The position numbers and the translations under genes were made by a program. DNA of 45,107 nt from a virus, in IMG/VR virus record IMGVR_UViG_3300013130_000007, positions 1-45,107 of that record; one strand, given 5' to 3'. Position 1 is the stretch's first letter; every line of letters begins with the position of its first letter. This document shows, in pieces, positions 3,456-45,107 of this stretch. The notes under the pieces were generated by a model. That model saw only the letters and a list, made by a program, of their open reading frames with translations. It made no database searches and was not told the DNA's origin.

Positions 3456-3564
3456 CCCTCAGTGAATCTAAGTTCTTATTTTCACTTCAAGCCTGGTATC
3501 GTAGCTCAGGCGGTCGGACGACTGTCTGCCCTCAATGAATCTAAGTTCTTATCTTCACTTCAGG
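3456..3564 (-). CRISPR. CRISPR mini-array 1 (2 repeats, 1 spacer)
   Basis: Two 36-nt repeats (3456-3491 and 3529-3564) flank one 37-nt spacer (3492-3528). Read on the minus strand, they match the repeat of all other arrays in the window (start CCTGAAGTGAAG, centre TAAGAACTTA, end CACTGAGGG). The distal repeat is degenerate at its 5' end (CTTGAAG) and has one internal change. The leader element lies at 3565-3698, so transcription would run leftward. The spacer resembles the 5' half of a tRNA gene on the + strand. Confidence 0.93.
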
Positions 3565-3698
3565 GGCCATCAGGTTTGACCCTGAATATCCCTGACTTTT
3601 AGTGGCATTCTGCGATGGACTAAATCACTCGAAGTGTTTAACCCATCGCCGTCGGCCTGAAGGTGGCCATCTCTAAACGTATCTTAAGACACGTCTAG
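3565..3698 (-). ncRNA. Conserved structured leader/tracr-like element of array 1
   Basis: About 134 bases, minus strand, directly abutting the first repeat of array 1. The same sequence precedes arrays 2-5. Hairpins in transcription order are a long 5' stem (CTAGACGTGTC / GATACGTTTAG), GGCC-loop-GGCC, a stem GCGATGG / CCATCGC enclosing CACT-TCG-AGTG, and TCAGG / CCTGA next to the repeat. Homology with the array 2 element continues about 30 bases further upstream, so the two form imperfect inverted repeats around the genes at 3752 and 4047. A leader with promoter function and a tracrRNA-like guide scaffold are the two main readings. Confidence 0.8.
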
Positions 3699-3751
3699 GT
3701 GATGGCCTATTGTAACTACAATTTAATCCTAGTCAATCAAGGAGTCAAAAA

Positions 3752-4045
3752 ATGAATCACACACCGGAACCGTGGACGATTGCATACGAGGACGATGATG
3801 GCAACGAGTATGACAATGGAGTGCGGATTGATTCGCCCGAGGAGCCGGTCGCATTTAACGTCATTGACTGCTCTGCCCACCTCATTGCCGCAGCACCGGA
3901 ACTGTTAGCTGCACTAATAGGTCTTGTCAATATCGTTAGCGACGACCCTAACGACTACCCTGACATGGCCGCTTATCGCCAAGCAAAAAAATGCGAACAG
4001 GCTGGGGCTGCCGCTATCGCTAAAGCAGAGGGGAGGAGAGAGTGA
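3752..4045 (+). CDS. TPGPW-family small protein A
   Basis: A 97-aa acidic protein, MNHTPEPWTIAYEDDDGNEY at its N-terminus, with LIAAAPELLAALIGL near residue 45. It is paralogous to the next gene and to the C-terminal part of the protein at 545. A GGAG ribosome binding site lies upstream. The gene sits with its paralogue between two divergently oriented CRISPR leader-arrays, so the pair could be passengers of a mobile CRISPR cassette or work with it; the sequence does not decide. No biochemical function is known to me for this family. Confidence 0.75.
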   Translation: MNHTPEPWTIAYEDDDGNEYDNGVRIDSPEEPVAFNVIDCSAHLIAAAPELLAALIGLVNIVSDDPNDYPDMAAYRQAKKCEQAGAAAIAKAEGRRE

Positions 4046-4046
4046 A

Positions 4047-4361
4047 ATGAGTCATACACCGGGACCGTGGGCAATTTATGACGACGGCCCAAATGGATCT
4101 GACGTAATACTTGCTAATGTCGAGGGAGAAAATTGGGATGTTGCTTACATCTCAAACGACAGCTGCGAATCTAGGCCGGAGAATGAGCGCAAGGCTAATT
4201 CCCGCCTCATTGCGGCAGCACCGGAACTGCTAGAGCGGCTCAACGCTATGGTCAGTGGCATGGAGTGCGAGTGCGACAAGGCGGACGTAGAACATCCAAT
4301 GTGTGACATCTGTTGGTCACGATTGGTCATTGCTAAAGCAAAACCGCTTGACCTTGACTAG
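4047..4361 (+). CDS. TPGPW-family small protein B
   Basis: A 104-aa protein, MSHTPGPWAIYDDGPNGSDV at its N-terminus, with LIAAAPELLERL near residue 55 and a cysteine-rich C-terminus (ECECDKADVEHPMCDICW) that could bind a metal. The ATG at 4047 follows GGGAGGAGAGAG and lies one base after the stop of its paralogue, so the two are coupled. The homology region leading into CRISPR array 2 begins directly after its TAG stop. Confidence 0.75.
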   Translation: MSHTPGPWAIYDDGPNGSDVILANVEGENWDVAYISNDSCESRPENERKANSRLIAAAPELLERLNAMVSGMECECDKADVEHPMCDICWSRLVIAKAKPLDLD

Positions 4362-4391
4362 GATGAAGTTGTAGTCACAATATGCTATCAC

Positions 4392-4525
4392 CTAGACGTG
4401 TCTTAAGATACGTTTAGAGATGGCTACCTTCAAGCCGACAGCGAGGGGCTAAACACTTCGAGTGATTTAATGCCTCGCAGAATGCCATTAAAAGTCAGGG
4501 ATATTCAGGGTCAAACCTGATGGCC
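4392..4525 (+). ncRNA. Conserved structured leader/tracr-like element of array 2
   Basis: The same element as at 3565-3698, in + orientation. In the second hairpin GGCC/GGCC is replaced by GGCT/AGCC, and in the third GCGATGG/CCATCGC by GCGAGG/CCTCGC. Both are paired substitutions that keep the stems, which supports a functional RNA structure. The first hairpin is of the CTAGACGTGTC type shared with arrays 1 and 5. Confidence 0.8.
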
Positions 4526-4705
4526 CCTGAAGTGAAGATAAGAACTTAGATTCATTGAGGGGCTAAAGCCAATTGGTCGTTCACAGCCTGCTTACACCCT
4601 GAAGTGAAGATAAGAACTTAGATTCATTGAGGGTAACTGGTTCATGCGTGTTGTGCTGCGGAACGATCCCCTGAAGTGAAGATAAGAACTTAGATTCACT
4701 GAGGG
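4526..4705 (+). CRISPR. CRISPR mini-array 2 (3 repeats, 2 spacers)
   Basis: Repeats lie at 4526-4561, 4598-4633 and 4670-4705, with two 36-nt spacers between them. The first two repeats carry the TTCATTGAGGG variant and the last the TTCACTGAGGG form. About 35 bases of unique sequence follow the last repeat before AT-rich DNA and a terminator, so a final unit without a closing repeat is possible. Confidence 0.95.
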
Positions 4706-4772
4706 ACGGCAAACCACCGATCGAAGTCAAAAACAGCTAATCTGCGTTTAGTTGTTGACAAGTTTTACACGA

Positions 4773-4805
4773 GCCGGGCAGGCGTTCTGCCCGGCTTTTT
4801 TTTTT
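4773..4805 (+). terminator. Intrinsic terminator after CRISPR array 2
   Basis: A perfect 9-bp stem GCCGGGCAG / CTGCCCGGC with a five-base loop is followed by ten T residues. It closes the array 2 transcript. Confidence 0.93.
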
Positions 4806-7827: not shown

Positions 7828-7850
7828 AAATACCCAAAAGAGGGGTTTTT
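7826..7850. terminator. Weak bidirectional terminator
   Basis: An AAAAATACCC / GGGGTTTTT arrangement around an AAAAGA loop at the stop of the alpha-CTD-like gene. The GC stem is only 3-4 bp, but it has a T tract on one side and an A tract on the other. Confidence 0.55.
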
Positions 7851-7853
7851 AGC

Positions 7854-7911
7854 CTACAGCACAAGTTGCGAATTCGCAGCTTGTGCTATTTATCCTCTAC
7901 GAGGATATGTA
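7854..7911. repeat. 58-bp inverted repeat, left arm
   Basis: Exactly the reverse complement of 8165-8222. Each arm also contains a nearly perfect internal palindrome (AGCACAAG ... CTTGTGCT centred on GCGAATTCGC) and a second hairpin (ATCCTC-TAC-GAGGAT). The arms enclose 253 bases without an ORF. Confidence 0.9.
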
Positions 7912-8164: not shown

Positions 8165-8222
8165 TACATATCCTCGTAGAGGATAAATAGCACAAGCTGC
8201 GAATTCGCAACTTGTGCTGTAG
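8165..8222. repeat. 58-bp inverted repeat, right arm
   Basis: The exact reverse complement of 7854-7911. The last bases overlap the -35 region of the promoter candidate that leads into the structured RNA at 8250. Confidence 0.9.
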
Positions 8223-8249
8223 ACAAAACGTCTTCTTTTGTGGTACAAT
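8220..8249 (+). promoter_or_regulatory. Sigma70-like promoter for the downstream RNA
   Basis: TAGACA (5 of 6 to TTGACA) at 8220-8225 and TACAAT (5 of 6 to TATAAT) at 8244-8249 are separated by 18 bases. It is the clearest housekeeping-type promoter I can see in the window and points into a GC-rich structured segment that ends in a terminator. Confidence 0.6.
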
Positions 8250-8407
8250 GCTAACTGCGCAAGCGCAGCAAAGGTTGCCAAACCTAGTCTCGGAGTGACC
8301 GGACTAAATTGGCGGTGCTCCGTGAGTGCCAGGGGTCTCATTTGCCCTTAACCACGGAAAGAACGACTCCGTTCCGCGGTGGCCCCGATGCGTAATTCGG
8401 GGCTTTT
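8250..8407 (+). ncRNA. Putative structured small RNA
   Basis: About 155 bases between a promoter candidate and an intrinsic terminator, with no credible ORF. Visible hairpins are CTGCG-CAAG-CGCAG, AGTC.CGG-AGTGA-CCG.GACT and CCACGGAA ... TTCCGCGGTGG. I do not recognise it as tRNA, tmRNA, 6S RNA or a known riboswitch. It may be an independent phage small RNA or a leader of the gene at 8441. Confidence 0.5.
8382..8407 (+). terminator. Intrinsic terminator of the small RNA
   Basis: A 7-bp stem GCCCCGA / TCGGGGC is followed by TTTT, 33 bases before the next start codon. Confidence 0.7.
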
Positions 8408-8440
8408 GTTTCATTTACCTCAACTCTACAAGGAAAATTT

Positions 8441-20306: not shown

Positions 20307-21389
20307 ATGGACAATGACGAGAAAAAAGCGCTTAATCGGGCTTTGTTTCGACGTTGTAAAGCAACGTTCAAACATGTGCGCATTAAAAATCCCGGGGAAA
20401 AACAAACTCGCCGATTGACGACGGATTTGATTACTGGACAACCTAAATCGGTGATCACTCATCCTGGAGAATACTACGCAGTTTGTTGTCCTTTCTGCAA
20501 TGACACGCGATATCGGTGTTACATTAATCATCGGTATGGTACAGATGACGAGTTTGGTAGATCGCAAACACAGTTAGCCTTTTGCTTTAATGCCGGTTGT
20601 TCACTGGCATCGAAAGCACCTCACGCATATCAGGAATTAGCTGAAATGTTGTGCGGGCAAAAGCTAGTCAGTTTGCGCAAGGCCACAATTGCGGAAGGTC
20701 GTGAAGTTGATGTTGATCAAATACGAATGACTTGGCCAGGCAAAGTAACCCGTATCGATCAGCTTCCGCCAGAGCATGAAGCCAATGTTTATCTGACAAG
20801 TCGCGGATTTGATCCAGACAAGATCGGAAAATTTTGGAACGTGCACTGGTGCAGCGAGTCTCCGCGTTATATCTGCCAAGAACGGATAATCATTCCAATC
20901 TACCACAACAAAAAAATGGTCGGTTGGCAGGCTCGCGCAGCTTACGACATTGATTGGAAACTATCGCACTTACCGAAGTACTACACGGCTCCAGGAACTC
21001 CAAGACGTCAAGTCTTGTATAACCTCGGAAACGCAGCAAAGTATCAAACAGGTATAGTGGTTGAAGGTGTTACGGACGTGTGGAAGATAGGACCTCAAGC
21101 GGTATGCACGCTTGGAGCTTCATTCACGCAACCGCAACAAACCCTGTTTCGCAAACACTTTAAGGATTACGGTGGTGTGTTGCTATATGACCCGGACGTC
21201 AAAGACAAGATTGCATCACAAGTAGCGGCAATCGTTTCATCGCTACACGACCAGTTAAATTCCGGATTTTGCGCAGTGTACTTACCTGACGGCACAGATC
21301 CTGGTTCACTCGATCGTGATTTTTTAAGGCCTTACATCTTGCAGCAAGCCGCTGAGCAAGGTGTAACTGTCTCTTGGAACAAGAGGTAA
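20307..21389 (+). CDS. DnaG-like DNA primase
   Basis: A 360-aa primase, short as in phages. There is an N-terminal zinc-binding region (CCPFCNDTRYRC near residue 60 and CFNAGC near 93), then a TOPRIM domain with VVEGVTDVWKIG near 252, GASF, and LLYDPDVKDK near 293 (the D-x-D element). It makes RNA primers at the fork with the DnaB-like helicase. The start at 20307 follows GAGGGAGACT; the open frame also allows TTG twelve bases upstream, which would put the binding site inside the gene. Confidence 0.9.
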   Translation: MDNDEKKALNRALFRRCKATFKHVRIKNPGEKQTRRLTTDLITGQPKSVITHPGEYYAVCCPFCNDTRYRCYINHRYGTDDEFGRSQTQLAFCFNAGCSLASKAPHAYQELAEMLCGQKLVSLRKATIAEGREVDVDQIRMTWPGKVTRIDQLPPEHEANVYLTSRGFDPDKIGKFWNVHWCSESPRYICQERIIIPIYHNKKMVGWQARAAYDIDWKLSHLPKYYTAPGTPRRQVLYNLGNAAKYQTGIVVEGVTDVWKIGPQAVCTLGASFTQPQQTLFRKHFKDYGGVLLYDPDVKDKIASQVAAIVSSLHDQLNSGFCAVYLPDGTDPGSLDRDFLRPYILQQAAEQGVTVSWNKR

Positions 21390-21391
21390 TT

Positions 21392-24300
21392 ATGGTTCGA
21401 CGTAAAGTCAAAATTTTTGGCGAAACTGTGCCGCAAACAGCTTCAACAGGTAATCCAGTCATTCAACAGGTTTACCTGAAAAGATTGGCTGAAATGCAGC
21501 AAGGTCTGGCGATATTTCCATTGACGGCACCTGGTTTACCTCCGCTACCGCCTAATTCAGCTTTTCTAAGCTATGTGCAAGCTTTGGGAGACGAAGAATC
21601 GAGAGTAGTTGAAGAGGTGGTTAAAAACGAAGAGGGTAAGAAGTCGACCGAGCGTCGGTTGATTTACAGTGACAAGTTGTTGTCCTTGATTCGTTCTGCG
21701 ATTCGTGACCCAGGATTTACGCTGCCTGTTGAAGTCGGTCCTCATCAAGAGAAAGAAGCTACGTTCGTTCCTGGACATTTGTGGGGTGCGGATAAAGCAA
21801 CTGGTCCTCGTGCTGCGGATGTCATGATTATCAACAAGAATCCATGGCTACCTGAGGAGAAGTCTGGTCGCTGTATGGTAGGCGAAGACGGGGTCTTGTT
21901 ATTGGATATCTTTAGGCGATTAAAAGCTAAAGGCGTTGGACGTTTCTACGTTACTCACCTAGTCAAATTTCGCCCACCAGACTGGAAGACTACGCTTAAA
22001 GCCGTTTGGATAAAAGACTGTTTCCACCTGCTTTACCAAGAGCTGAAGATCGTACAACCCAAATTCATTTTGTGCCTTGGCGCAGATGCAAGCAAAGTGC
22101 TTCTTGGCACATCTGCCGGTGTCGCTGAAATGGAAGGTCGCGTTGAAACTTTCCGGTATAACGCAGCTTTATCTGAAAAGGATGGAGACAATCATTGGCG
22201 AGAAGCCAAAGTCATGACTGTCGTTCATCCAAAGCAAGTGATCAGAGACCAGTCTGCGGCGAGGCAGCTTGAAAACGGCGTTGCGCGTTTTGTGGCGCTG
22301 CTTAACAACGTAGATGTCGGTTCAACCGAAAAGGTAGATCATCGAGTTGTCGATAACCACGCAGACTTGCTTCAAACTCTAATCGAGATTGAGCAACAAG
22401 CAGAAGACAACGTTATCGCTGTTGACGCGGAATGGCATGGACAGCATCCGGTAAACAAAGGTAGCTATATGCGTACGATACAGTTCGCATGGGCTCCTAA
22501 GAAAGCTGTAGGGATTAAGCTGCACGAACCTGGCGGTGAAGTTGTTGAAGGGTTTCGAGATGGTTACGTCAATCATCGCTGCATATTGACTAAAACGATT
22601 GCTTTGTTGAATACCTTTTTCAAGGGAGGCGAGTTGGATTTGGGCGACGGTACGAGTGTTACGTTCAAACGTAAGCGCGTAGTTGGTCATTTTTTCAACG
22701 CTGACCTTGAGTGGTTGGTAGCGTATGGAATTGATATTCAGGAATGTTTTCTGGTACCGCTATACGACCACCGTATCACTGAAGAGAACAAGAACACAAA
22801 GCGGTCAAAGCAATATCGCACAGACGGTTTCAAAGTAGGCGAAAATGTTCCTGCTTGGTATCGCACCAAGTACGAAGGCGGCGCGGACACAGGTTTAATG
22901 GCTCATGCAATTGAAGAGACTGCAACCTACAAGCTTGAGACACTGGCTATGCGATACACGACGGCACCGCGGTACGACAAAGAATTACAGGATTGGCGTA
23001 CGAAGTATTGTCAGGAGCAAGGGCTAAAAAGCGGTGATCTTGAAGGTTACGGTATGTGCCCTGATGAGATTCTGTTGCCATACGGTATGTATGACGCAGA
23101 TGTGACACTGCGATTGTTTTACAAGTTTTCTGTGTTACTAGACGAAGATTACGAAGGAAACAATTGCCGCGAAGCATTTTGGGAATCACAAATTGCAACA
23201 CCTTCAGTTCTTGAAATTCATCGTAGCGGTATCACCGTAGACCGTGGTCGAATTGATTTCTTGACTGCAAGGTTTGTGGCAGCAAGATTAAAAATTGAGG
23301 AGCAACTGCGAGCTGAAATCAAGTGGCCAGACTTCAACATTCGATCAACGCAACATGTAAAGGAGTTTTTATTCGGACATAAGCTCAACGGAAGGCTAGA
23401 TAAAGAAACGGGTAAACCTGTAAGGATTAGACCTGAGACTGCAATTAGCTTATCGCTGACACCTTTGTTTGATACAGGTAAACCACCAAAACCGTGGATT
23501 GAAATTATTCGAGCGCATAAGGAACACGAACATGCTCCTAGCACGAATAAGCAAGCCTTGTCTTTGATGGCGCAGCAAGCTCCTAATGCCAACGCTGCAA
23601 GGTTGATCAACACGTTACGAGATTACCGATTTCTGGATCAGGTTCTCAAAACAGTTTTGCGTCCACCTGTAACAGATGACGATACTGGTGAAGCTGTTTT
23701 TGATGACGACGGTAATTGGTCATACGAGGACGGTCTAGCGTCAATGACCTGCGACGACGGAAAGGTCCGGACTCACATTTACCAGACCAAGGAAACCGGC
23801 CGGTGGTCGAGTGCCCGCCCCAACTTGCAGAATATCAGCAAGCAGCGGGACCCTGACTACAAGCGGCTTCTGGGCGACGAGTACAAGTACAGTCTGCGGA
23901 GTGTACTGAAAGCGTCTCCGGGTCATGTGTTGATTGAGGCAGATTACGTAGGTGCTGAGTTGTTTGGTATGGCAGTCATGTCTGGTGATCCTAACATGAT
24001 TGAGCATGCCACACGAAATCAGTTACCAGAAGATCACCCAGACTACTACGACATTCACTCTAATGTGGCCGTGTTTGCGTTTAAGCTGAATTGTTTGCCG
24101 ACCAAAAGTGGTTTGGCTTCAATCGGTAAAAAGCACATTCGTATTGTGGCTAAGTCGGTTATTTTTGGTATTGCTTACGGTCGAGGGGCAAAAGCTATTG
24201 CTGTTGCTGCTAAAGAGCAGGGAATTGAAATTACCGTCGATGAGGCGCAAGCCGTTATCAACGCGATTTTTCAAATGTATCCGTTACTGAAGCCGTTTTT

Positions 24301-24949
24301 TGAGGAGTGTCAGCAAAGGGCTACCGGTCGCTATGTAGATCCTGGAACTGGAGAACTTGTAAAAGAGCGATACCTGTGTAACTGTTACGGACGTTTTCGT
24401 CGGTTTCCTGATTCTGCCGGTGACCTAGCTTTGGCTGCTGAGTTTGAACGTCAAGCAATGAACTATCCGATTCAAAGTATGATTGCTTCTGCTGTAAGTC
24501 GTGCGTTGGCTTACATCCACGACTACAAGATGAAGCAATTTAGAAAAGGTCGGGACATGTTCACAATCCTCCTACAAATTCACGATGCGATTTTGTTGGA
24601 GGTTCCTTACAAATACGTTAAGCACGTGTGTGAGCATGTGTTACCGACGTACATGAGAAAGGCTGTGCCAATTTACCCTTCTAATTTGGAAGGGATACCA
24701 ACAGGTTCGGGGCCTTACTATCTTGGTATTGAAGCTGAGGTGATGGATCATTGGGGCGAAGGATTAACTTTCGAGCAAGCAGTCGAACGTAATCTACCTA
24801 CTGGTCACGGTGGAGTTGAAGGTTGCGTTGTGAACTACAGCAAACCTGGAGAAGCTAAACCGCAGCGTTCTGTTGTCCTGGCTAGTAAAGCAAGGCCTGT
24901 TGCAAATCTTGTTGAACCTGAGAGGTTTCCAAAGAAAAGGAAATGGTAA
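21392..24949 (+). CDS. UDG-like / 3'-5' exonuclease / family A DNA polymerase fusion
   Basis: A 1185-aa replicative polymerase. Residues about 120-300 look like a family-4-type uracil-DNA glycosylase: INKNPWLPEEKSGRCMVGED near 144, FYVTHLVKFRPP near 188, LGADASKVLL, and VVHPKQV near 277. A DEDD proofreading exonuclease follows (AVDAEWHG near 343; GHFFNADLEWLV). The polymerase has motif A IEADYVGAELFGMA near 846, motif B RIVAKSVIFGIAYG near 917, and motif C LQIHDAILLEVP near 1061. Motif C has Ala where Pol I has the Glu of HDE. UDG-PolA fusions are known from other phages. Together with dcd this raises the question of how uracil is handled at the phage fork. The start follows AAGAGGTAATT. Confidence 0.92.
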   Translation: MVRRKVKIFGETVPQTASTGNPVIQQVYLKRLAEMQQGLAIFPLTAPGLPPLPPNSAFLSYVQALGDEESRVVEEVVKNEEGKKSTERRLIYSDKLLSLIRSAIRDPGFTLPVEVGPHQEKEATFVPGHLWGADKATGPRAADVMIINKNPWLPEEKSGRCMVGEDGVLLLDIFRRLKAKGVGRFYVTHLVKFRPPDWKTTLKAVWIKDCFHLLYQELKIVQPKFILCLGADASKVLLGTSAGVAEMEGRVETFRYNAALSEKDGDNHWREAKVMTVVHPKQVIRDQSAARQLENGVARFVALLNNVDVGSTEKVDHRVVDNHADLLQTLIEIEQQAEDNVIAVDAEWHGQHPVNKGSYMRTIQFAWAPKKAVGIKLHEPGGEVVEGFRDGYVNHRCILTKTIALLNTFFKGGELDLGDGTSVTFKRKRVVGHFFNADLEWLVAYGIDIQECFLVPLYDHRITEENKNTKRSKQYRTDGFKVGENVPAWYRTKYEGGADTGLMAHAIEETATYKLETLAMRYTTAPRYDKELQDWRTKYCQEQGLKSGDLEGYGMCPDEILLPYGMYDADVTLRLFYKFSVLLDEDYEGNNCREAFWESQIATPSVLEIHRSGITVDRGRIDFLTARFVAARLKIEEQLRAEIKWPDFNIRSTQHVKEFLFGHKLNGRLDKETGKPVRIRPETAISLSLTPLFDTGKPPKPWIEIIRAHKEHEHAPSTNKQALSLMAQQAPNANAARLINTLRDYRFLDQVLKTVLRPPVTDDDTGEAVFDDDGNWSYEDGLASMTCDDGKVRTHIYQTKETGRWSSARPNLQNISKQRDPDYKRLLGDEYKYSLRSVLKASPGHVLIEADYVGAELFGMAVMSGDPNMIEHATRNQLPEDHPDYYDIHSNVAVFAFKLNCLPTKSGLASIGKKHIRIVAKSVIFGIAYGRGAKAIAVAAKEQGIEITVDEAQAVINAIFQMYPLLKPFFEECQQRATGRYVDPGTGELVKERYLCNCYGRFRRFPDSAGDLALAAEFERQAMNYPIQSMIASAVSRALAYIHDYKMKQFRKGRDMFTILLQIHDAILLEVPYKYVKHVCEHVLPTYMRKAVPIYPSNLEGIPTGSGPYYLGIEAEVMDHWGEGLTFEQAVERNLPTGHGGVEGCVVNYSKPGEAKPQRSVVLASKARPVANLVEPERFPKKRKW

Positions 24950-25633: not shown

Positions 25634-27417
25634 TGCGTAAGAAAAGAAGTTTGGTGCCACGTACTCGTGAGTCGGTAAATCGACAGTTGGACAGTACGAA
25701 GGATGACGGATTTGCGATGACTCCGAAAGGAGACTTCAGCATCAATCCAAAGCTCAAGAATGTTCGGTTTGATCGTCTCCGTTGCTACAAGAACGGAAAA
25801 ACCGTCATTCGTATCTGGAACATGCTTGATCCAGAGAACCCCAGTGACGCGTTGCTAAACGGTCGTTTGTCCGCAGTCGACATGGCTGGTCTTGGTGGGA
25901 TGTCCATTTCAGAGCCTGCGTACTGCGTGCAGTATGCTGGTATTAACAAGGACACTATCGGCAATTACCTGTCTAGACCAGAAGATGCTGAGCCGTGTTC
26001 TTACATCATCGCTCGTAGTAAGGCTAGCGTCTATGAGGGTGTCGGGTTCTGGGACGAACCGTATGTCAAGCTGTATGTAACGGCGAAGAAAGCTCGAGAC
26101 ACGGGCGAATTTGGTCACGGTCGTGCTTGGGATCCAAAGTGGAATGCTTTGATGACAAACAAAGAAAACCCAGCTTTGGGTCCGTTCAAGCAACGCCACT
26201 TTGTTGTGTGCTCTGTTTACGAAAATGGTCCATCACTGGACTTGACGCGAGAGCACATTGAGTATCGAAAGTCTGGTAAGGACGTCTCGAAGGATATCGC
26301 TCGTAATGGAATTCCGCTTGGCGAAGGGCCCGAAGATCCTTTGGTTATTCTTCAGCTCCCGATTAGTGCTGGCAAAAAGCTGTTACAGCTTTGCTGCGCT
26401 GAAAAGCAAGATTGGGAAGGCGACGAGAATGTCAATCCATCCGTTATGTTCAAATACGGAGATCCTTGCGGTCATTTCGATGCTAGTTCTGGGATAGTTA
26501 AAGGCGGCGTGTTTTTCACGCTGTACAACCCAGAAAAGGTAGAGATTGAAAAGAACTCAACGTTCCGCGGTATCCTTAATCCGCAAGTGGTTGAGTACGA
26601 AGCAGCGGTGTCGAAGGTGTATGAAGGACCAAACGGCAAATTGACAGCTGATTTGTCGAAAGAACAGGTCGACAATATCTTGTCGAAGCATTTGTTCTTT
26701 TGGAAAGAAAGCAGCGCGGATCCTGAGGATTCGTATTTGTTGCACGAGCCGACAATTGAGGAGCGATGCCTTCTCATTGCAAAGGCGTACAAACAAGTTC
26801 CAAAGCTGCTTGAATTTTGCTGGATGTCGAATCCGGAATACTTGAATTTCGATTCCGTTCAAACTGTTCTCAAGAATCGAAAAGCCGTGTTAGTTCAAAA
26901 GCCTGACATGGACGACGAAGAGGAAGATGAGGACGACGTCGAAGAGGAAGTAGTGCAAACTACTACACCTGCGACAAAGACCAAGACTACGAAGAAAGCA
27001 GACAAACCAAAGAGTGCTGCTGACTTGGTCGACGAATTTGAAGACGATGAGGAAGACGTCAACGCTGCTCAGTCTGATGAAGAGGAATCTTTTGATGACG
27101 AGCCTGTTGTTGCAACGAAATCAAAACCAAATCCAACGAAGAAAAAGCCTCCTTTTGAAGTCGAAGACGATTTCGACGATGAAGACGAGGAAGAGCTTGA
27201 CGAAGACGAGCTTGATGACGATGAGCTCGAGGATGAGGATTTTGATGACGAAGACGATGAGGAAGACGATGCTGAAGAAGAAAAGTCTGACGACTTTGAC
27301 GACGAGGTAGATAATTCCGCAGTGCAAGAGCAATTGAACAATCACCTGTCAAAGGCGAAAGGTCTTGCTCGAAGCAGCAAACGAACTTCAACACCTCCAA
27401 AGGGTAAGAAGTCCTAG
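25633..27417 (+). CDS. Putative ssDNA-binding protein with very long acidic tail
   Basis: A 594-aa protein. Residues about 1-425 form a globular domain that I do not recognise. From about 428 to 575 the chain is low-complexity Asp/Glu with a few Lys/Pro islands, ending in a basic tip (GLARSSKRTSTPPKGKKS). A globular nucleic-acid-binding domain plus an acidic tail is the design of phage SSBs such as T4 gp32 and T7 gp2.5. The position between polymerase/tmk and the RecA-like gene fits, and no other SSB is apparent. The tail is far longer than usual. The stop codon TAG lies inside the array 3 leader. Confidence 0.6.
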   Translation: MRKKRSLVPRTRESVNRQLDSTKDDGFAMTPKGDFSINPKLKNVRFDRLRCYKNGKTVIRIWNMLDPENPSDALLNGRLSAVDMAGLGGMSISEPAYCVQYAGINKDTIGNYLSRPEDAEPCSYIIARSKASVYEGVGFWDEPYVKLYVTAKKARDTGEFGHGRAWDPKWNALMTNKENPALGPFKQRHFVVCSVYENGPSLDLTREHIEYRKSGKDVSKDIARNGIPLGEGPEDPLVILQLPISAGKKLLQLCCAEKQDWEGDENVNPSVMFKYGDPCGHFDASSGIVKGGVFFTLYNPEKVEIEKNSTFRGILNPQVVEYEAAVSKVYEGPNGKLTADLSKEQVDNILSKHLFFWKESSADPEDSYLLHEPTIEERCLLIAKAYKQVPKLLEFCWMSNPEYLNFDSVQTVLKNRKAVLVQKPDMDDEEEDEDDVEEEVVQTTTPATKTKTTKKADKPKSAADLVDEFEDDEEDVNAAQSDEEESFDDEPVVATKSKPNPTKKKPPFEVEDDFDDEDEEELDEDELDDDELEDEDFDDEDDEEDDAEEEKSDDFDDEVDNSAVQEQLNNHLSKAKGLARSSKRTSTPPKGKKS

Positions 27418-27543
27418 TTGTGGCAACATGACTAGAGATGGCCACCTTCAGGCCGACGGCGATGGGTTAAACACTTCGAGTGATTTAGTCCATCGTAGAA
27501 TGCCACTAAAAGTCAGGGATATTCAGGATCAAACCTGATGGCC
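27414..27543 (+). ncRNA. Conserved structured leader/tracr-like element of array 3
   Basis: About 130 bases from the TAG stop of the SSB-like gene to the first repeat. The 5' hairpin is the second type (CTAGTTG-TGG-CAAC followed by GACTAG), shared with array 4 only. The GGCC/GGCC hairpin, the GCGATGG ... CCATCGT stem around CACT-TCG-AGTG, and the TCAGG/CCTGA hairpin are kept. Confidence 0.8.
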
Positions 27544-27784
27544 CCTGAAGTGAAGATAAGAACTTAGATTCACTGAGGGTCGTGGAGGTTGCTTTAGGTT
27601 GTGGCGATGAAAAACCTGAAGTGAAGATAAGAACTTAGATTCACTGAGGGGCAATTGGGTTAGGCTACCCGGTCTTCATCACACTTACCTGAAGTGAAGA
27701 TAAGAACTTAGATTCACTGAGGGATCTCCAGTGGTGACGTTGAAATTGCTTGAAGTGAAGATAAGAACTTAGATTTACTGAGGG
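27544..27784 (+). CRISPR. CRISPR mini-array 3 (4 repeats, 3 spacers)
   Basis: Repeats lie at 27544-27579, 27615-27650, 27688-27723 and 27749-27784. The spacers are 35, 37 and only 25 nt. The last repeat is degenerate at both ends (CTTGAAG start, TTTACTGAGGG end), as expected at the distal end of an array. It separates the SSB-like and RecA-like genes. Confidence 0.95.
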
Positions 27785-27808: not shown

Positions 27809-27843
27809 ACGGGGTTAGGGCTAAGCCCTGACCCCGTTTTTTT
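27809..27843 (+). terminator. Intrinsic terminator after CRISPR array 3
   Basis: The stem ACGGGGT-T-AGGGC / GCCCT-G-ACCCCGT, with one mismatch and a TAA loop, is followed by seven T residues. It ends the array transcript 25 bases before the RecA-like gene. Confidence 0.9.
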
Positions 27844-33451: not shown

Positions 33452-33957
33452 CACTACAGGCTAGAATGACTGCGGATGATCGCCGATTGTATAATCCGGC
33501 TCGCGATGTTGCGCATAACTTTCAAGAAGTTATGAACCTAGTTGCGGGTCGTTTAGAGGACTACGCTTGGCCGGAGCTCAACGAAGTTCTGGCTCGCGAA
33601 GGAATCACAATTGATGATTTAGGGGAAGCTTGCGGTGCTTATTGTCGGTATTTAGCTAGCGCAGCGCAGGAGCCTAACGTGTCTATGGCCGAAGGCTTAG
33701 CTCGTTCAGGTTTTACGCAATGCGAACCTGCTGCGCAGGTAGCTGTGATGGCAATGCTGGGTACCTGTTATTCAGGTATTCAGCATGCTGGCATTCGAGA
33801 AGCTAGCGTTGGCGGCGAAGGTCCGATGTACACCGTGGCTGACTTGATCGTGCATGCAGAGAGATTTCAAGCACACATAGGTCAATCACGTTGGCGTCGC
33901 CGATGGGAAAGATTGAAAGGAAAAATCAAAGCTGGAATTAAAGCTTTGAGGTCCTAG
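33448..33957 (+). CDS. Hypothetical protein upstream of CRISPR array 4
   Basis: A 169-aa helical protein with an ATGA overlap to the preceding gene and a strongly basic C-terminus (RWRRRWERLKGKIKAGIKAL). Its stop codon TAG is the first base triplet shared with the array 4 leader (TCCTAG), the same arrangement as at the end of the SSB-like gene before array 3. Unknown function. Confidence 0.65.
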   Translation: MTLQARMTADDRRLYNPARDVAHNFQEVMNLVAGRLEDYAWPELNEVLAREGITIDDLGEACGAYCRYLASAAQEPNVSMAEGLARSGFTQCEPAAQVAVMAMLGTCYSGIQHAGIREASVGGEGPMYTVADLIVHAERFQAHIGQSRWRRRWERLKGKIKAGIKALRS

Positions 33958-34083
33958 TTGTGGCAACATAACTAGAGATGGCCACCTTCAGGCCGACGGC
34001 GAGGGGCTAAACACTTCGAGTGATTTAGTGACTCGCAGAATGCCAATAAAAGTCAGGGATATTCAGAATCAAACCTGATGGCC
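33954..34083 (+). ncRNA. Conserved structured leader/tracr-like element of array 4
   Basis: About 130 bases, with the same 5' hairpin type as array 3, here fully paired (CTAGTT / AACTAG around GTGGCAACAT). The third stem reads GCGAG / CTCGC with CTAAA / TTTAG inside it, a paired change from the GCGATGG, TTAAA/TTTAG form. The last hairpin is shorter (TCAG / CTGA). Confidence 0.8.
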
Positions 34084-34192
34084 CCTGAAGTGAAGATAAG
34101 AACTTAGATTCACTGAGGGCGGGAAACCGATACGAACTTGATGAAATGGGAAACAGCCTGAAGTGAAGATAAGAACTTAGATTTACTGAGGG
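34084..34192 (+). CRISPR. CRISPR mini-array 4 (2 repeats, 1 spacer)
   Basis: Repeats at 34084-34119 and 34157-34192 flank a 37-nt spacer. The second repeat has the distal TTTACTGAGGG form. Only 45 bases separate it from the start of the Cas12-like gene, with no terminator seen between them, so the array and effector could share a transcript. Confidence 0.94.
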
Positions 34193-34237: not shown

Positions 34238-35611
34238 ATGGTTAAAAAAATCAAGGACGTATACGTCCGAACAATTTGTGTTCCGGTTGCTGAGTGTATC
34301 TCGCATACCAAAACAGAACTTTACGCAGCTATACGAAAGTCACTTGATGCTTCGCGTAGAGTTTCAAACTTGGCGGCAAGCGAATGTGCGCGGCAAGACG
34401 ATATCCGCGATGAAAAGTGCAAAAAGTTGTATACATATCCTGCATGCCACGATCCGTTATTGGATGCGGTACCAGGTAAGGGCGCGATTGTTTCGGCATT
34501 ATGTCGTGCCGTAGAGAAAAACTACTTGCAAGATCGGTGGAAAGTTCAGCGAGGCGATCGAAGTCTTCGTAACTATCGTACCATGCCGTGGCCGCTGCTA
34601 CAGAGTCAAGGCCATTTTAAGCTAATTGACGATGGAGAATTTTTAGTTGCAAGAATTCGACTGTTTGACGGAACCTATGACGTTCGTTTGGCAGGCGGAA
34701 GTAACTACCGAGATCAAATAGCAGGTTTGCGTAAGTCAATTTCAATTGACGGTATAGGCGACAGTAAGTTGTGGATTGAAAAGGCAGGAGATAAAAAGCA
34801 CAAAGCGATGCTTGGCATTAGTGTTAAGTTGCCTAAGAAAGTTGAAAAAGAACGAACCGGTGCTGTTGAAGTAGTGAGCGGCATTGAATTTCTTGTTGCG
34901 ATGACTATTCCACGAAGGCAAAGTCCTTTTGTTTTTACTGGTGAAGACGTTCGGATTTGGAAAGAAACAAGCGTCCGACGTAATCAACAGTGGAGACAGG
35001 CAAGAAAACAAGGCGCTGACAGAAAACGGTTGCGAGAACAATCGAGAGCATTTGCGGAAAAAATGCAACGCAGACTCAAAACTAAAGTTCACGAGCTGGC
35101 GTCGCAGATTGTTAAAAAGGCTGATAGATGCAAAGTCGCAACAATCGAAATCGACTTTACCATCAAGAGTTATTTGAAACAATTTCCATGGAGTGATCTT
35201 AAGGAAAAAATCAAGCACAAAGCGGAGCTATGCGGTATTGCGATTTTTGACAAAACGCAGACAATAGCAGAGCCAGACTTAGACAAGCCTCATATTTACT
35301 TTTTGTACGATCCAAACGCAGAGCGCGTAAAGATTGGCAGGACGAAAGGTAAAGCAGGTCGGTTGGAGTCATACTACACATTCGTGCCTGATTGTGTAGT
35401 GTTGGCGATCGACAATCAGCCAATCAACAAATTGGTAAGCAGAGAAAACCATTGGCACGCTTTGTTTGACAACCATCGCGTGACAGGTCGAAAAGAAGCT
35501 GGCAATGAGGTATTTGAGGCTGGTTACGTAATTAAGTGGTTGCGAGATAGGGGCTGGTTAGGAAATGCCGGAAACCTCTCGCAGATCGCTCAAGTCCTAG
35601 ACGTGTCTTAA
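34238..35611 (+). CDS. Cas12-like effector with C-terminal GIY-YIG nuclease domain
   Basis: A 457-aa protein flanked by CRISPR arrays 4 and 5. Residues about 1-200 look like a compact Cas12/TnpB recognition part (basic, helical, YAAIRKSLDASRRVSNLAA near 29). VVSGIEFLVAM (212-222) corresponds to RuvC-I 'GIDLG', with Glu217 in the Asp position. GEDVRIWKETSVRRNQQWRQ starts a basic bridge-helix-like region; VATIEIDF (300-307) then PWSDLKEKIKHKAELCGI (317-334) match RuvC-II with its following helix. The zinc finger and RuvC-III that should follow are absent. Instead residues 351-440 form a GIY-YIG domain: HIYFLY, VKIGRT, Arg375, Glu403. I infer an RNA-guided DNA-binding protein with a replaced nuclease. 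The start follows GAAAGGGAAAATT. The gene ends inside the array 5 leader. Confidence 0.75.
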   Translation: MVKKIKDVYVRTICVPVAECISHTKTELYAAIRKSLDASRRVSNLAASECARQDDIRDEKCKKLYTYPACHDPLLDAVPGKGAIVSALCRAVEKNYLQDRWKVQRGDRSLRNYRTMPWPLLQSQGHFKLIDDGEFLVARIRLFDGTYDVRLAGGSNYRDQIAGLRKSISIDGIGDSKLWIEKAGDKKHKAMLGISVKLPKKVEKERTGAVEVVSGIEFLVAMTIPRRQSPFVFTGEDVRIWKETSVRRNQQWRQARKQGADRKRLREQSRAFAEKMQRRLKTKVHELASQIVKKADRCKVATIEIDFTIKSYLKQFPWSDLKEKIKHKAELCGIAIFDKTQTIAEPDLDKPHIYFLYDPNAERVKIGRTKGKAGRLESYYTFVPDCVVLAIDNQPINKLVSRENHWHALFDNHRVTGRKEAGNEVFEAGYVIKWLRDRGWLGNAGNLSQIAQVLDVS

Positions 35612-35730
35612 GATACGTTTAGAGATGGCCACCTTTAGGCCGACAGCGATGGGTTAAACACTTTGAGTGATTTAACCCCTCGCAGAATGCCATTAAAAGT
35701 CAGGGATATTCAGGGTCAAACCTGATGGCC
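35597..35730 (+). ncRNA. Conserved structured leader/tracr-like element of array 5
   Basis: 134 bases that overlap the last codons of the Cas12-like gene, whose TAA stop lies in the loop of the first hairpin (CTAGACGTGTC / GATACGTTTAG, 35597-35622). The GGCC hairpin has a loop change only. The third stem has a T/C mismatch but gains an 8-bp stem GGGTTAAA / TTTAACCC around CACT-TTG-AGTG. Confidence 0.8.
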
Positions 35731-36199
35731 CCTGAAGTGAAGATAAGAACTTAGATTCACTGAGGGAGGATGTGATCGATCGCAGCTTGGCCTTTCAGCC
35801 ATCCTGAAGTGAAGATAAGAACTTAGATTCACTGAGGGCTCGGAGGAAAACTCATGTTCGATGACAATGGAACACCCTGAAGTGAAGATAAGAACTTAGA
35901 TTCACTGAGGGCCCATACTCGAGATCCATCTCTTTCTCGACGATAGCCTGAAGTGAAGATAAGAACTTAGATTCATTGAGGGCAATGACGCGATCGGCCG
36001 ATCGCTGAGACGAGCACATTTGAAGTGAAGATAAGAACTTAGATTCACTGAGGGCTGTGAGCCTCGACGTAATCCTGCATCGTGATCGGAACCTGAAGTG
36101 AAGATAAGAACTTAGATTCATTGAGGGCAATGACGCAATCGGCCGACCGCCGAGACGAACACACCTGAAGTGAAGATAAGAACTTAGATTCACTGAGGG
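35731..36199 (+). CRISPR. CRISPR array 5 (7 repeats, 6 spacers), main array
   Basis: Repeats start at 35731, 35803, 35876, 35947, 36019, 36092 and 36164, each 36 nt, with spacers of 36, 37, 35, 36, 37 and 36 nt. Repeats 4 and 6 have the TTCATTGAGGG variant, and the spacers that follow them are near-identical (four transitions in 36 positions). Repeat 5 is degenerate at its 5' end (TTTGAAG). The repeat can fold (AGTGAA ... TTCACT, with CCT/AGG outside). No terminator separates the array from the exonuclease gene 30 bases downstream. Confidence 0.96.
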
Positions 36200-42254: not shown

Positions 42255-45107
42255 ATGTCACTCTACGGAACCTCGAGCCCTTTTTTCAATCGAGGGGCAG
42301 GTACAACTTATTCTGAGTCTGCATTCGCTGACCCTTTTAATGATTACGCAACAACGCAGATGCCGACCACCATGCGGTCGGCACTATGGTGGTCAGAGTA
42401 TATCTGGCAGGTACAAGGTACCTACCGCATGGCAATGGAACGAATTGTTAGTTACTTTTTGACTGATATTGAGTTAGGCGGCGAAGCCAGCGACGACGAA
42501 AAAAAGAAATACAAAGAATTTCTAGACGAACAGCTTTATGCGTTGAATTTCTTAGGGCAGGTCATGCGTGACCGATTGTGTTTTCATGGAGACGTGAAGA
42601 CAACCACACGGGACGGTGTGTTCAAACTTCGCGAGCTGGTCGGGCAGACCGTCGATGTTCTCTCGCGAGACGGCGTGTATCGCCCGGCGACCTTCAAGTC
42701 GTTTGGCCGACAGGAGCTGCTCCAGGTCGAGTTCTCCGATGGCCGCACCGTGTTGGCCACCCCCGAGCACGAGTGGATCGCGCTCAACTGCTCGGGCAAG
42801 GAGGTCACGGTCGCGACCAAAGACCTCAAGCCCCGGTACCGGATCCAGCGCACGGTGGCCCCCCGCCCCGCCAAGGACGCCGATTACCACGAGGGCGTGC
42901 GCCACGGTTTCACCTTTGGCGACGGCTACCTGCATCAGCGCAGCCCCAGCCGCCCGGGTGGCTCCGAGCGGCCCCTGGTCAGCTGCGCCTGCTTCTATGG
43001 CGACAAGGACAGCCAGCTGCTGCCTTACTTCGAGGGGCACGGCTATAAGCCACTATCACAGCCCGAGCAGAACCGGGTGGTGATCGACGGCCTGCCAGCG
43101 CACTACAAGCAGCTGCCTGCCAACGACGCCAGCGCCAGCTACTGGTACGGCTTCGTGTCCGGATTCCTAGCCGCCGACGGCACCGTCGACCAGCACGGCT
43201 GTGCCCTGCTGACCCAGATCACGCGGACCACCCTCGAGGCCATCGAGGCCCAGCTGCCGCGGATCGGAATGGCCGCTGGGCCGATCCGGGCCCAGCGCCG
43301 GATCACCGACCTGCGGAAGTACAACGGCGAGAATCGCACCAATTCTGGAATTTACGACACCACGATCCACTTCATGACACTGCTCAAGCAGTTCATGACC
43401 CCCGACGACTTCCTGCTCGAGCACCACCGCGCCAACTTCTGCGCCGAGTGGAACCCTGAAAGCAGCTACGGCCGCTACGTGGCGGTGCGAGGCGTGACCG
43501 AGACCGGGCTGGTCGACGAGGTGTTCTGCTGCCAGGAGATGGAGACGCACACCTTCGTCATCGACCAGGGCGTGCTGACCAAGAACTGCTATGGCAACGC
43601 ATTTGCCAGCGTTGTTGTTCCGTTTCGCAGATACCTGCAATGCCCTAAAACTGGCGACATGTATCCTCTCAAAGTTGTTTACTACAATTTTGATTTCAAG
43701 TTCAACGATCAATTTGAGTTTGTCGCAACTTGTCCAAAAACAGGTTGGCGTGGTCCGTGGCAGTTAATTGACAAACCACGAGAAGAGTCAGATCACTTAA
43801 TCTTGAAGCGTTGGAATCCGCACGAGATTGAGCTACTGCACGATCCATACACAGACGAAGTCGCTTATCTTTGGCGCATTCCTGAGTATTACAAGCGAAT
43901 GGTTAAAGAAGGCAATCTCTTTCACCTTGAGCGAGCTAGTAAACAAGTTCTTGAGGCGATTCGACATAACAAGTTGTTTCGTTTTAATAAAGAAGCGCTC
44001 TTTCATATGAAAGAGCCAACTTTAGCCGGTATTCGTAACATGGGATGGGGTATTCCCAGAAGCATAGTTAATTACCGACAAATCTGGTATGTACAAGTGC
44101 TTCGCAGATATAACGAAGCCATTGCGCTGGACTACATTGTTCCGTTCCGCTTGATTACGCCAGGTACTAGTGGAGGTACAAGTGCAGGCGGTATCGCGAC
44201 AAACGATCCAATGAGCATTTACGCCGCAGGTGATTTCAGATCTCAAGTGCGAGGCATGCTTAACCGTAGACGTCGTGATCCTGCTTCTTGGCAAATGCTG
44301 CCGTTTCCGGTGAATTACCAAATGCTGGGCGGTGACGCAAAACAGCTTGCACCAACTGAAATGATCCAGCAAGGGTACGAAACATTATTGAATGAATCTG
44401 GCGCTCCAGTTGAGTTTTACAACGGAAGTTTGGCTATTCAAGCTGCTCCTGTTGCTTTGCGCCTGTTTGAAAGCACACACCGGCAATTAGTCACTGATGC
44501 AAACATGCTCTTGCAATGGATGGTTAACGCTATCAGTCGTATCATGTCCTGGGAATTGATAGACTGCAATTTGAAGCGAGTAACCATCGCAGACGACATG
44601 CAGAAGCAAATGTCTGCTTTGCAGCTCATGATGGGTCAACAGCTTTCAGGTACTTCTGGTCTTGCTGCAATTGGCTACGACTGGGAAACAGAACAAAAAC
44701 GTATTGCTGACGAAGCTCGTAAGCAACAGGAAATGCAAGCAAGGCAACAAGAAGAAATGGAGCAAGCTGGGTTTGCTCAACAAATTGCTAAGGGTGTTAA
44801 TCCAATGGCTCCTCCTGCGGGCGGCGATCCAAATGCTGCGGCAGGTGGTGCGGGTGGCGCACCTGCTGGTGGTGCTCCAGCAGGCGGAGATCCAGCTGCT
44901 GCGGGTATGCCATCGCAGTCGCCAGTATCTAACTACATTCAATCCATGGGCCCGAACGCCATGGTTACACCAAATGATTTGCAATCCGCAGCAGAACAAC
45001 TGGCAAATGAATTGCTTGGTTTGCCTGAAGGGGTAAAAGACTCAGAATTACGCAAGCTCAAGCAGTTCAATCCAACTTTGCACTCTATTACTCGAGCAAA
45101 GATGGAC
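42255..45107 (+). CDS. Portal-like protein interrupted by an intein (3' end outside window)
   Basis: One open frame of 951 codons runs to the window edge without a stop. The start has a strong AGGAGG site. The extein reads ...VMRDRL joined to CYGNAFASVVVPFRRYLQCP after intein removal. Portal-type features are WWSEYIWQVQGTYRMAMERI at the N-terminus, the SGAPVEFYNGSLAIQAAPVA segment, and a Gln-rich helix then an Ala/Gly/Pro-rich tail (PAGGDPNAAAGGAGGAPAGG). Two CPKTG motifs about 36 residues apart suggest a zinc ribbon inserted in the clip or wing region. The portal forms the ring through which DNA enters the capsid. Assignment rests on pattern and position, not a search. Confidence 0.75.
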   Translation, partial: MSLYGTSSPFFNRGAGTTYSESAFADPFNDYATTQMPTTMRSALWWSEYIWQVQGTYRMAMERIVSYFLTDIELGGEASDDEKKKYKEFLDEQLYALNFLGQVMRDRLCFHGDVKTTTRDGVFKLRELVGQTVDVLSRDGVYRPATFKSFGRQELLQVEFSDGRTVLATPEHEWIALNCSGKEVTVATKDLKPRYRIQRTVAPRPAKDADYHEGVRHGFTFGDGYLHQRSPSRPGGSERPLVSCACFYGDKDSQLLPYFEGHGYKPLSQPEQNRVVIDGLPAHYKQLPANDASASYWYGFVSGFLAADGTVDQHGCALLTQITRTTLEAIEAQLPRIGMAAGPIRAQRRITDLRKYNGENRTNSGIYDTTIHFMTLLKQFMTPDDFLLEHHRANFCAEWNPESSYGRYVAVRGVTETGLVDEVFCCQEMETHTFVIDQGVLTKNCYGNAFASVVVPFRRYLQCPKTGDMYPLKVVYYNFDFKFNDQFEFVATCPKTGWRGPWQLIDKPREESDHLILKRWNPHEIELLHDPYTDEVAYLWRIPEYYKRMVKEGNLFHLERASKQVLEAIRHNKLFRFNKEALFHMKEPTLAGIRNMGWGIPRSIVNYRQIWYVQVLRRYNEAIALDYIVPFRLITPGTSGGTSAGGIATNDPMSIYAAGDFRSQVRGMLNRRRRDPASWQMLPFPVNYQMLGGDAKQLAPTEMIQQGYETLLNESGAPVEFYNGSLAIQAAPVALRLFESTHRQLVTDANMLLQWMVNAISRIMSWELIDCNLKRVTIADDMQKQMSALQLMMGQQLSGTSGLAAIGYDWETEQKRIADEARKQQEMQARQQEEMEQAGFAQQIAKGVNPMAPPAGGDPNAAAGGAGGAPAGGAPAGGDPAAAGMPSQSPVSNYIQSMGPNAMVTPNDLQSAAEQLANELLGLPEGVKDSELRKLKQFNPTLHSITRAKMD
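42579..43586 (+). other. Intein with LAGLIDADG-type endonuclease domain
   Basis: 336 residues in frame with the portal gene. Block A is CFHGDVKTTTRDGVF (Cys1), block B has LATPEHEW (T-x-x-H), block F is METHTFVIDQGVL, and block G is TKN followed by Cys+1 of the extein. Two LAGLIDADG-like motifs lie at about residues 107-118 (HGFTFGDGYL) and 186-199 (GFVSGFLAADGTV). The penultimate residue is Lys, not the usual His. The DNA is GC-rich with C/G-ending codons, unlike the surrounding AT-leaning phage genes, so it looks recently acquired from a high-GC source. It should splice itself out, leaving L-C at the junction. Confidence 0.93.

What the first reader, a model, noticed from the sequence alone, without database searches (positions are those of the whole stretch)
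3565..4525. Two paralogous genes enclosed by inverted CRISPR leader-arrays
The leaders of arrays 1 and 2 form imperfect inverted repeats of about 165 bases (3565-3731 and 4362-4525) around the two TPGPW genes, with homology extending past the hairpin to the stop codon of the right-hand gene. The unit has the form of a cassette: array-leader-genes-leader-array. It could invert or move by recombination between leaders.
Basis: seen in the sequence. Interest (0 to 1): 0.7.

Follow-up and report, generated by a model that had tools for sequence, protein, structure and literature searches.

The report
Guide-RNA units of phage Cas12f–GIY-YIG protein
The inverted repeats are two of five copies of a structured guide-RNA-plus-CRISPR-array unit in a phage, and they most likely serve a phage-encoded Cas12f-like protein whose own DNA-cutting site is dead and which carries a different (GIY-YIG) nuclease domain instead: a combination not found in the literature searched here.

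Summary
The inverted repeat is real and longer than reported: 3529-3736 / 4354-4561, 208 nt, 93% complementary. It is not a dedicated cassette boundary. Each arm is one of five copies in the window (3456-3736, 4354-4705, 27415-27784, 33955-34192, 35594-36199) of a strongly folded RNA directly followed by a 36-nt-repeat CRISPR mini-array. The 'leader' folds far better than shuffles (z -6.4 and -4.5). It carries two anti-repeats complementary to both ends of the repeat, as Cas12f tracrRNAs do. Copies 1 and 2 carry an extra promoter-like stretch; copies 3-5 begin at or just before the upstream gene's stop codon. Copies 4 and 5 flank a 457-aa ORF related to Cas12f/TnpB (PADLOC Cas12f E 2e-17). Its RuvC-I aspartate is replaced by valine, its RuvC-III and zinc finger are missing, and a T5orf172 (GIY-YIG) domain sits in their place. 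Six collinear relative phages lack the gene and the arrays. The repeat core is absent from 84,980 reference genomes and from IMG/VR. Best reading: a phage-borne RNA-guided effector with a swapped nuclease and dispersed tracrRNA-array units. Inversion or mobility of the two-gene 'cassette' is unsupported. Nuclease action and spacer targets are inferred or unknown.

The parts
3456..3564 (-). Mini-array 1: two 36-nt repeats, one 37-nt spacer
3565..3708 (-). Scaffold RNA (tracrRNA-like 'leader') 1
3709..3736 (-). Promoter-like TTGACT-16-TACAAT immediately upstream of scaffold 1
   Evidence: consensus match only
3752..4045 (+). Small phage gene, PHROG 1273 (TPGPW family), between units 1 and 2
4047..4361 (+). 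Paralogous small phage gene, PHROG 1273
4354..4381 (+). Promoter-like TTGACT-16-CACAAT overlapping the stop codon of 4047-4361
   Evidence: consensus match only
4382..4525 (+). Scaffold RNA 2
4526..4705 (+). Mini-array 2: three repeats, two spacers
4771..4797 (+). Intrinsic terminator after array 2
27415..27543 (+). Scaffold RNA 3; begins at the stop codon (27415-27417) of the upstream gene
27544..27784 (+). Mini-array 3: four repeats, three spacers
27809..27837 (+). Intrinsic terminator after array 3
33955..34083 (+). Scaffold RNA 4; begins at the stop codon (33955-33957) of the upstream gene
34084..34192 (+). Mini-array 4: two repeats, one spacer
34238..35611 (+). 457-aa Cas12f/TnpB-like effector with inactivated RuvC and C-terminal GIY-YIG domain
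35291..35521 (+). T5orf172 (GIY-YIG superfamily) domain in place of RuvC-III/zinc finger
   Evidence: 23.2 bits, cut-off 20
35594..35730 (+). Scaffold RNA 5; overlaps the 3' end of the effector gene (stop codon 35609-35611 lies inside it)
35731..36199 (+). Array 5: seven repeats, six spacers, two of them 89% identical to each other

Best explanation
The inverted arms are two copies of a guide-RNA unit made of a tracrRNA-like scaffold followed by a CRISPR mini-array; copies 1 and 2 also carry a promoter-like stretch. Five such units are scattered in the 3' ends of phage transcription units and serve one phage-encoded, Cas12f-derived effector at 34238-35611. The scaffold is transcribed together with the array. 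Its two anti-repeats (UCAGGG and CCUUC/A) pair with the 5' and 3' ends of the repeat, in cis with the first repeat and in trans with later ones, to form Cas12f-type guide RNAs. The Cas12f moiety binds guide and target but cannot cut, because the RuvC-I Asp is replaced by Val and RuvC-III and the zinc finger are missing. The fused GIY-YIG domain most likely supplies the cut. Spacers point at unknown targets, probably competing phages or other mobile DNA. SHOWN: the repeats, structured RNA, complementarity, gene homology, domain swap, absence from relatives. INFERRED: transcription, complex formation, target type, cleavage by GIY-YIG.
For: Five scaffold-array copies, two of them directly flanking the effector gene and one overlapping its 3' end. 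Effector: PADLOC Cas12f 2e-17 and Cas12u3 3.8e-15; Cas12f1 chains are the only PDB hits; a four-sequence Cas12f profile gives 5.6e-11 against a best of 0.019 in 1000 shuffles, and aligns the RuvC-I Asp of GVDLG with Val of EVVSG. T5orf172 at 23.2 bits against a cut-off of 20. RNA: z -6.44 and -4.48; 96% of 280 pair cells are standard pairs across copies, 3 pairs have double changes, against 21-43% when partners are slid; both repeat ends pair into the leader in 4 of 5 copies as tested, while shuffled leaders match this in 0-2 of 200. [quoted passage not shown] Effector, units 4-5 and unit 3 are absent from collinear relatives.
Against: No relative of the system was found elsewhere, so there is no cross-species covariation or conservation. 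With five close copies the covariation measures exceed column shuffles only modestly. In copy 5 the second anti-repeat forms in one fold but not in a slightly different context or in trans. The T5orf172 score is only just above its cut-off. No spacer target, PAM or expression data. No Cas1/Cas2 was recognised, although the contig is a fragment.
Confidence: 0.62

Rival explanations
1. The effector is a guided binder only (CRISPRi-like, as Cas12m, TldR or nuclease-dead Cas12f), and the GIY-YIG domain is inert or structural; spacers silence target genes.
For: Inactivated RuvC relatives exist and repress or regulate (PMC11656645; PMC13418256); PDB 9n9c 'Nuclease-deactivated Cas12f' is also changed at RuvC-I and has no chain beyond the same point. 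One spacer (35839-35878) looks like a ribosome-binding site plus start codon.
Against: An added nuclease-superfamily domain retaining Y, KIG, R, H/E and EVF-type positions (seen in sequence) is unexpected for a pure binder.
Confidence: 0.25
2. Mini-arrays that borrow the host's CRISPR-Cas effector (inter-virus competition type); the Cas12f-like gene is unrelated to them.
For: Viral mini-arrays with host repeats are known (PMC11656645); the arrays are short.
Against: The repeat core is absent from 84,980 species genomes (exact 21-mer). Scaffold copies flank and overlap the effector gene. The leader carries anti-repeats.
Confidence: 0.06
3. One reading: leader-genes-leader is an invertible or mobile cassette recombining between the inverted leaders.
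For: 208-nt, 93% inverted repeat; mosaic leader copies suggest recombination among them.
Against: Units occur singly elsewhere; leader 1's core is nearest to leader 3; no recombinase-like gene was recognised between the arms; no inverted form or second location was found; the enclosed genes are ordinary phage paralogues with a third copy outside.
Confidence: 0.04
4. RNA-guided homing element: the effector cuts unoccupied sites in sibling phages so that the unit copies itself into them.
For: Exact placement after stop codons at sites empty in relatives; GIY-YIG domains are typical of homing endonucleases (general knowledge).
Against: No spacer matches the empty sites, flanks or any relative beyond shuffle level.
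Confidence: 0.05

Closest known systems
Type V-F CRISPR-Cas (Cas12f)
   Same: Effector homology; scaffold upstream of an array on the same strand; two repeat/anti-repeat stems predicted; 36-nt repeats
   Different: RuvC-I Asp lost, RuvC-III and zinc finger missing, GIY-YIG fused; five dispersed scaffold-array units; phage-borne; no adaptation genes seen
Naturally nuclease-deactivated Cas12f (PDB 9n9c)
   Same: RuvC-I Asp replaced; the solved chain (365 aa) matches up to residue 361, i.e. no RuvC-III/zinc-finger part beyond it
   Different: 9n9c has no GIY-YIG domain; the sequences are only distantly related
TldR (phage-encoded nuclease-dead TnpB repressors)
   Same: Phage-encoded, RuvC-inactivated member of the TnpB/Cas12 superfamily with a guide-RNA cassette next to the gene
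   Different: TldR is described with a gRNA cassette rather than CRISPR arrays, and without a GIY-YIG fusion
Viral CRISPR mini-arrays
   Same: Short arrays on a virus without Cas1/Cas2
   Different: Own effector and own scaffold RNA; repeat not shared with any reference genome

Membership tests
Type V-F CRISPR-Cas (Cas12f) | Cas12f-like effector | tested here: met
   PADLOC 2e-17; Cas12f profile 5.6e-11
Type V-F CRISPR-Cas (Cas12f) | Intact RuvC D-E-D site | tested here: not met
   RuvC-I Asp aligned to Val in two alignments; homology to Cas12f ends before RuvC-III and T5orf172 follows
Type V-F CRISPR-Cas (Cas12f) | C-terminal zinc finger/target nucleic acid binding domain | tested here: not met
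   No CxxC pair after residue 340 of the translation; T5orf172 instead
Type V-F CRISPR-Cas (Cas12f) | tracrRNA with long and short repeat/anti-repeat | tested here: met
   Predicted only: 6-bp and 5-bp stems with the two repeat ends; copy 5 depends on the context folded
Type V-F CRISPR-Cas (Cas12f) | T-rich PAM and guided DNA cleavage | not testable with these tools
   No protospacer found
Type V-F CRISPR-Cas (Cas12f) | Cas1/Cas2 adaptation module (often missing) | tested here: inconclusive
   None recognised among the translated and scanned proteins; not every ORF was scanned and the contig is a 45-kb fragment
TldR / nuclease-dead TnpB | Inactivated RuvC with a guide RNA cassette, no array | tested here: not met
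   RuvC inactivated, but multi-spacer arrays are present
Viral mini-array using host Cas | Repeat identical to a host CRISPR repeat | tested here: not met
   0 matches in genome contigs; the true host may not be in that collection
GIY-YIG nuclease (T5orf172) | Family profile score above cut-off | tested here: met
   23.2 against 20 bits
GIY-YIG nuclease (T5orf172) | Catalytic residues in place | not tested
   Y...KIG..., R, ENHWH and NEVF read by eye only; no aligned family members or structure
Invertible cassette | Both orientations observed and a recombinase | tested here: not met
   Only one orientation in the data; no recombinase recognised in the scanned ORFs; relatives lack the unit

The most novel reading that the evidence does not exclude
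A natural RNA-guided nuclease in which a Cas12f targeting core has lost RuvC activity and cuts with a fused GIY-YIG domain, programmed by five tracrRNA-array units dispersed through a phage genome.
Probability: 0.48. Interest if true: 0.92.

Novelty: new variant of a known kind. Interest (0 to 1): 0.77.

Why it matters
If right, it shows that evolution has replaced the single-site RuvC nuclease of a Cas12 effector with an unrelated nuclease domain, a natural counterpart of engineered dCas-nuclease fusions and a compact (457 aa) candidate for guided cutting with a different cleavage chemistry. It also shows a phage spreading complete guide units (scaffold plus array) into the 3' ends of its own transcription units, so that one effector is fed by several promoters and expression times.

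Tried and rejected
Close relatives of the effector: none in viral contigs, genome contigs, phages or plasmids. Exact repeat and scaffold cores in IMG/VR and the repeat in GTDB genomes: none. Spacer targets in relatives, IMG/VR (three cores) and phages (two spacers): nothing above chance. The spacer of array 1 looked like the 5' half of a tRNA, but ARAGORN and Rfam give no tRNA. Rfam finds no family for the scaffolds. A Rhodococcus phage protein matching the GIY-YIG part is not a T5orf172 member and was dropped. A search for an association of Cas12 or TnpB with GIY-YIG or T5orf172 in held papers found none describing a fusion (only passages of one paper were read), but subscription papers and preprints are mostly not held.

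Full report
Observation. The inverted repeat is real: 3529-3736 against 4354-4561, 208 nt without gaps, 93% complementary, 617 nt apart. The enclosed genes are two PHROG 1273 paralogues; a third lies at 545-976.

It is a family, not a pair. A pattern search finds 18 copies of the repeat core, none expected by chance, in five arrays at 3456-3564 (-), 4526-4705, 27544-27784, 34084-34192 and 35731-36199 (+). DNA comparison shows that each array is preceded by the same ~130-145-nt 'leader'. The repeat is 36 nt, CCTGAAGTGAAGATAAGAACTTAGATTCAYTGAGGG. There are 13 spacers of mostly 35-37 nt (the listed spacers there include the CCT of the next repeat). In arrays 1, 3 and 4 the last repeat carries base changes in the core, as CRISPR arrays often do at the trailer end (general knowledge).

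The leader is a structured RNA. Leader plus first repeat folds at -69.9 kcal/mol against -42.5 +/- 4.3 for shuffles in copy 5 (z -6.4), and z -4.5 in copy 3. The common fold has hairpin 1; a long hairpin (GCGAUGGG.../...CCAUCGC) with changes on both sides of a pair; a stem UCAGGG:CCCUGA between leader and the 5' end of the repeat; the repeat's own hairpin; and a stem CCUUC:GAGGG between leader and the 3' end of the repeat, next to the spacer. Across the five copies 96% of pair cells are standard, against 21-43% when partners are slid. Column shuffles are exceeded only modestly, since five close copies carry little covariation. Pairing of both repeat ends into the leader is matched by 0-2 of 200 shuffled leaders for copies 1-4. 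For copy 5 the 3'-end stem forms in one context and not in another. This double repeat/anti-repeat is what is described for Cas12f1 guides, a long stem plus a 5-7 bp short one (PMC11246509). Hence 'leader' = tracrRNA-like scaffold, by inference.

Why two are inverted. Copies 1 and 2 alone share some 30-45 further bases, which hold TTGACT-16-TACAAT and TTGACT-16-CACAAT promoter-like sites pointing into the scaffold (consensus matches only, 4 found in that region where shuffles gave 1.8 on average). Copies 3 and 4 begin exactly at the TAG stop codon of the upstream gene; copy 5 begins 15 nt before the stop codon of the effector gene and overlaps it. Arrays 2 and 3 end at intrinsic terminators; in relatives a terminator-like hairpin follows the corresponding gene without the array. 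So copies 3-5 are placed to be read with upstream genes, and copies 1 and 2 appear to be independent units firing outward. Copy relationships are mosaic: hairpin 1 is identical in 1, 2 and 5 and different in 3 and 4; the core of 1 is nearest to 3 (105/107). That suggests recombination among copies in the past, but nothing shows present inversion.

The effector. Between units 4 and 5 lies an ORF of 457 aa (ATG 34238, stop 35611). PADLOC Cas12f 2e-17 and Cas12u3 3.8e-15, weak TnpB and OrfB_IS605 models, and Cas12f1 chains as the only PDB hits. A profile of four Cas12f sequences, copied from PDB alignments printed, hits at 5.6e-11 against 0.019 for the best of 1000 shuffles. In both alignments the RuvC-I aspartate (GVDLG) falls on Val (EVVSG). 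Homology ends just before RuvC-III; the next 77 residues are a T5orf172 domain of the GIY-YIG superfamily (23.2 bits, cut-off 20), and there is no zinc finger. The solved 'nuclease-deactivated Cas12f' 9n9c shows the same loss at RuvC-I and no chain beyond this point. The RuvC site is therefore very probably dead and the GIY-YIG domain is the only evident nuclease.

Origin. Seven IMG/VR contigs encode a related DNA polymerase, six of them at 58-74% identity. Those six are collinear with the window and lack effector, repeats and T5orf172. The genes on either side of units 4-5 are near neighbours there (12-28 bp apart in five, 267 bp in G006, where another short ORF-like stretch lies between). 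In G005 and G006 the genes flanking the window's 3.4-7.5 kb stretch, which holds units 1 and 2, lie about 100 bp apart. The system was thus gained in this lineage, or lost repeatedly. The repeat core is absent from 84,980 species genomes and IMG/VR, against the idea of arrays borrowed from a host CRISPR system, although the true host may not be held.

Targets are unknown. No spacer matches the window, the relatives (at shuffle level), three tested cores in IMG/VR or two tested in phages. Two spacers of array 5 are 89% identical, suggesting two variants of one target.

Verdict. The thing itself is a phage-borne type V-F-like system with an inactivated RuvC, a GIY-YIG domain in its place, and five dispersed scaffold-array units.

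Noticed in passing
21374-24949: Family A DNA polymerase with an N-terminal uracil-DNA glycosylase domain fused (UDG 6.8e-13, DNA_pol_A 2.4e-42).
   Followed up: partly
42594-43589: In-frame 65% GC insert inside a 46% GC open frame (42255-45107): starts CFHGDVKTTTRDG..., ends ...VLTKNC, which looks like an intein in a structural gene; Pfam gave no hit at 0.001.
   Followed up: partly
7848-7911 and 8165-8228: A second, unrelated inverted repeat (64 nt, 97% complementary, 253 nt apart) with palindromes at its ends in a non-coding stretch; no Rfam family.
   Followed up: partly
8230-8410: Non-coding stretch with several GC-rich stems (read by eye), possibly another structured RNA; no Rfam match above cut-off.
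   Followed up: no
35983-36021 and 36128-36166: Two spacers of array 5 are 89% identical, all four differences in the aligned part being transitions: possibly two variants of one target.
   Followed up: partly
35839-35878: Spacer reads GGAGGAAAACTCATG..., like a ribosome-binding site and start codon; could point to targeting of gene starts.
   Followed up: partly
976-1007 and 1247-1278: Identical 32-nt intergenic repeat AACGCTCGGATTCACCGAGCCGAAAGGAAAGA before two small genes, with a diverged copy at 512-543.
   Followed up: no
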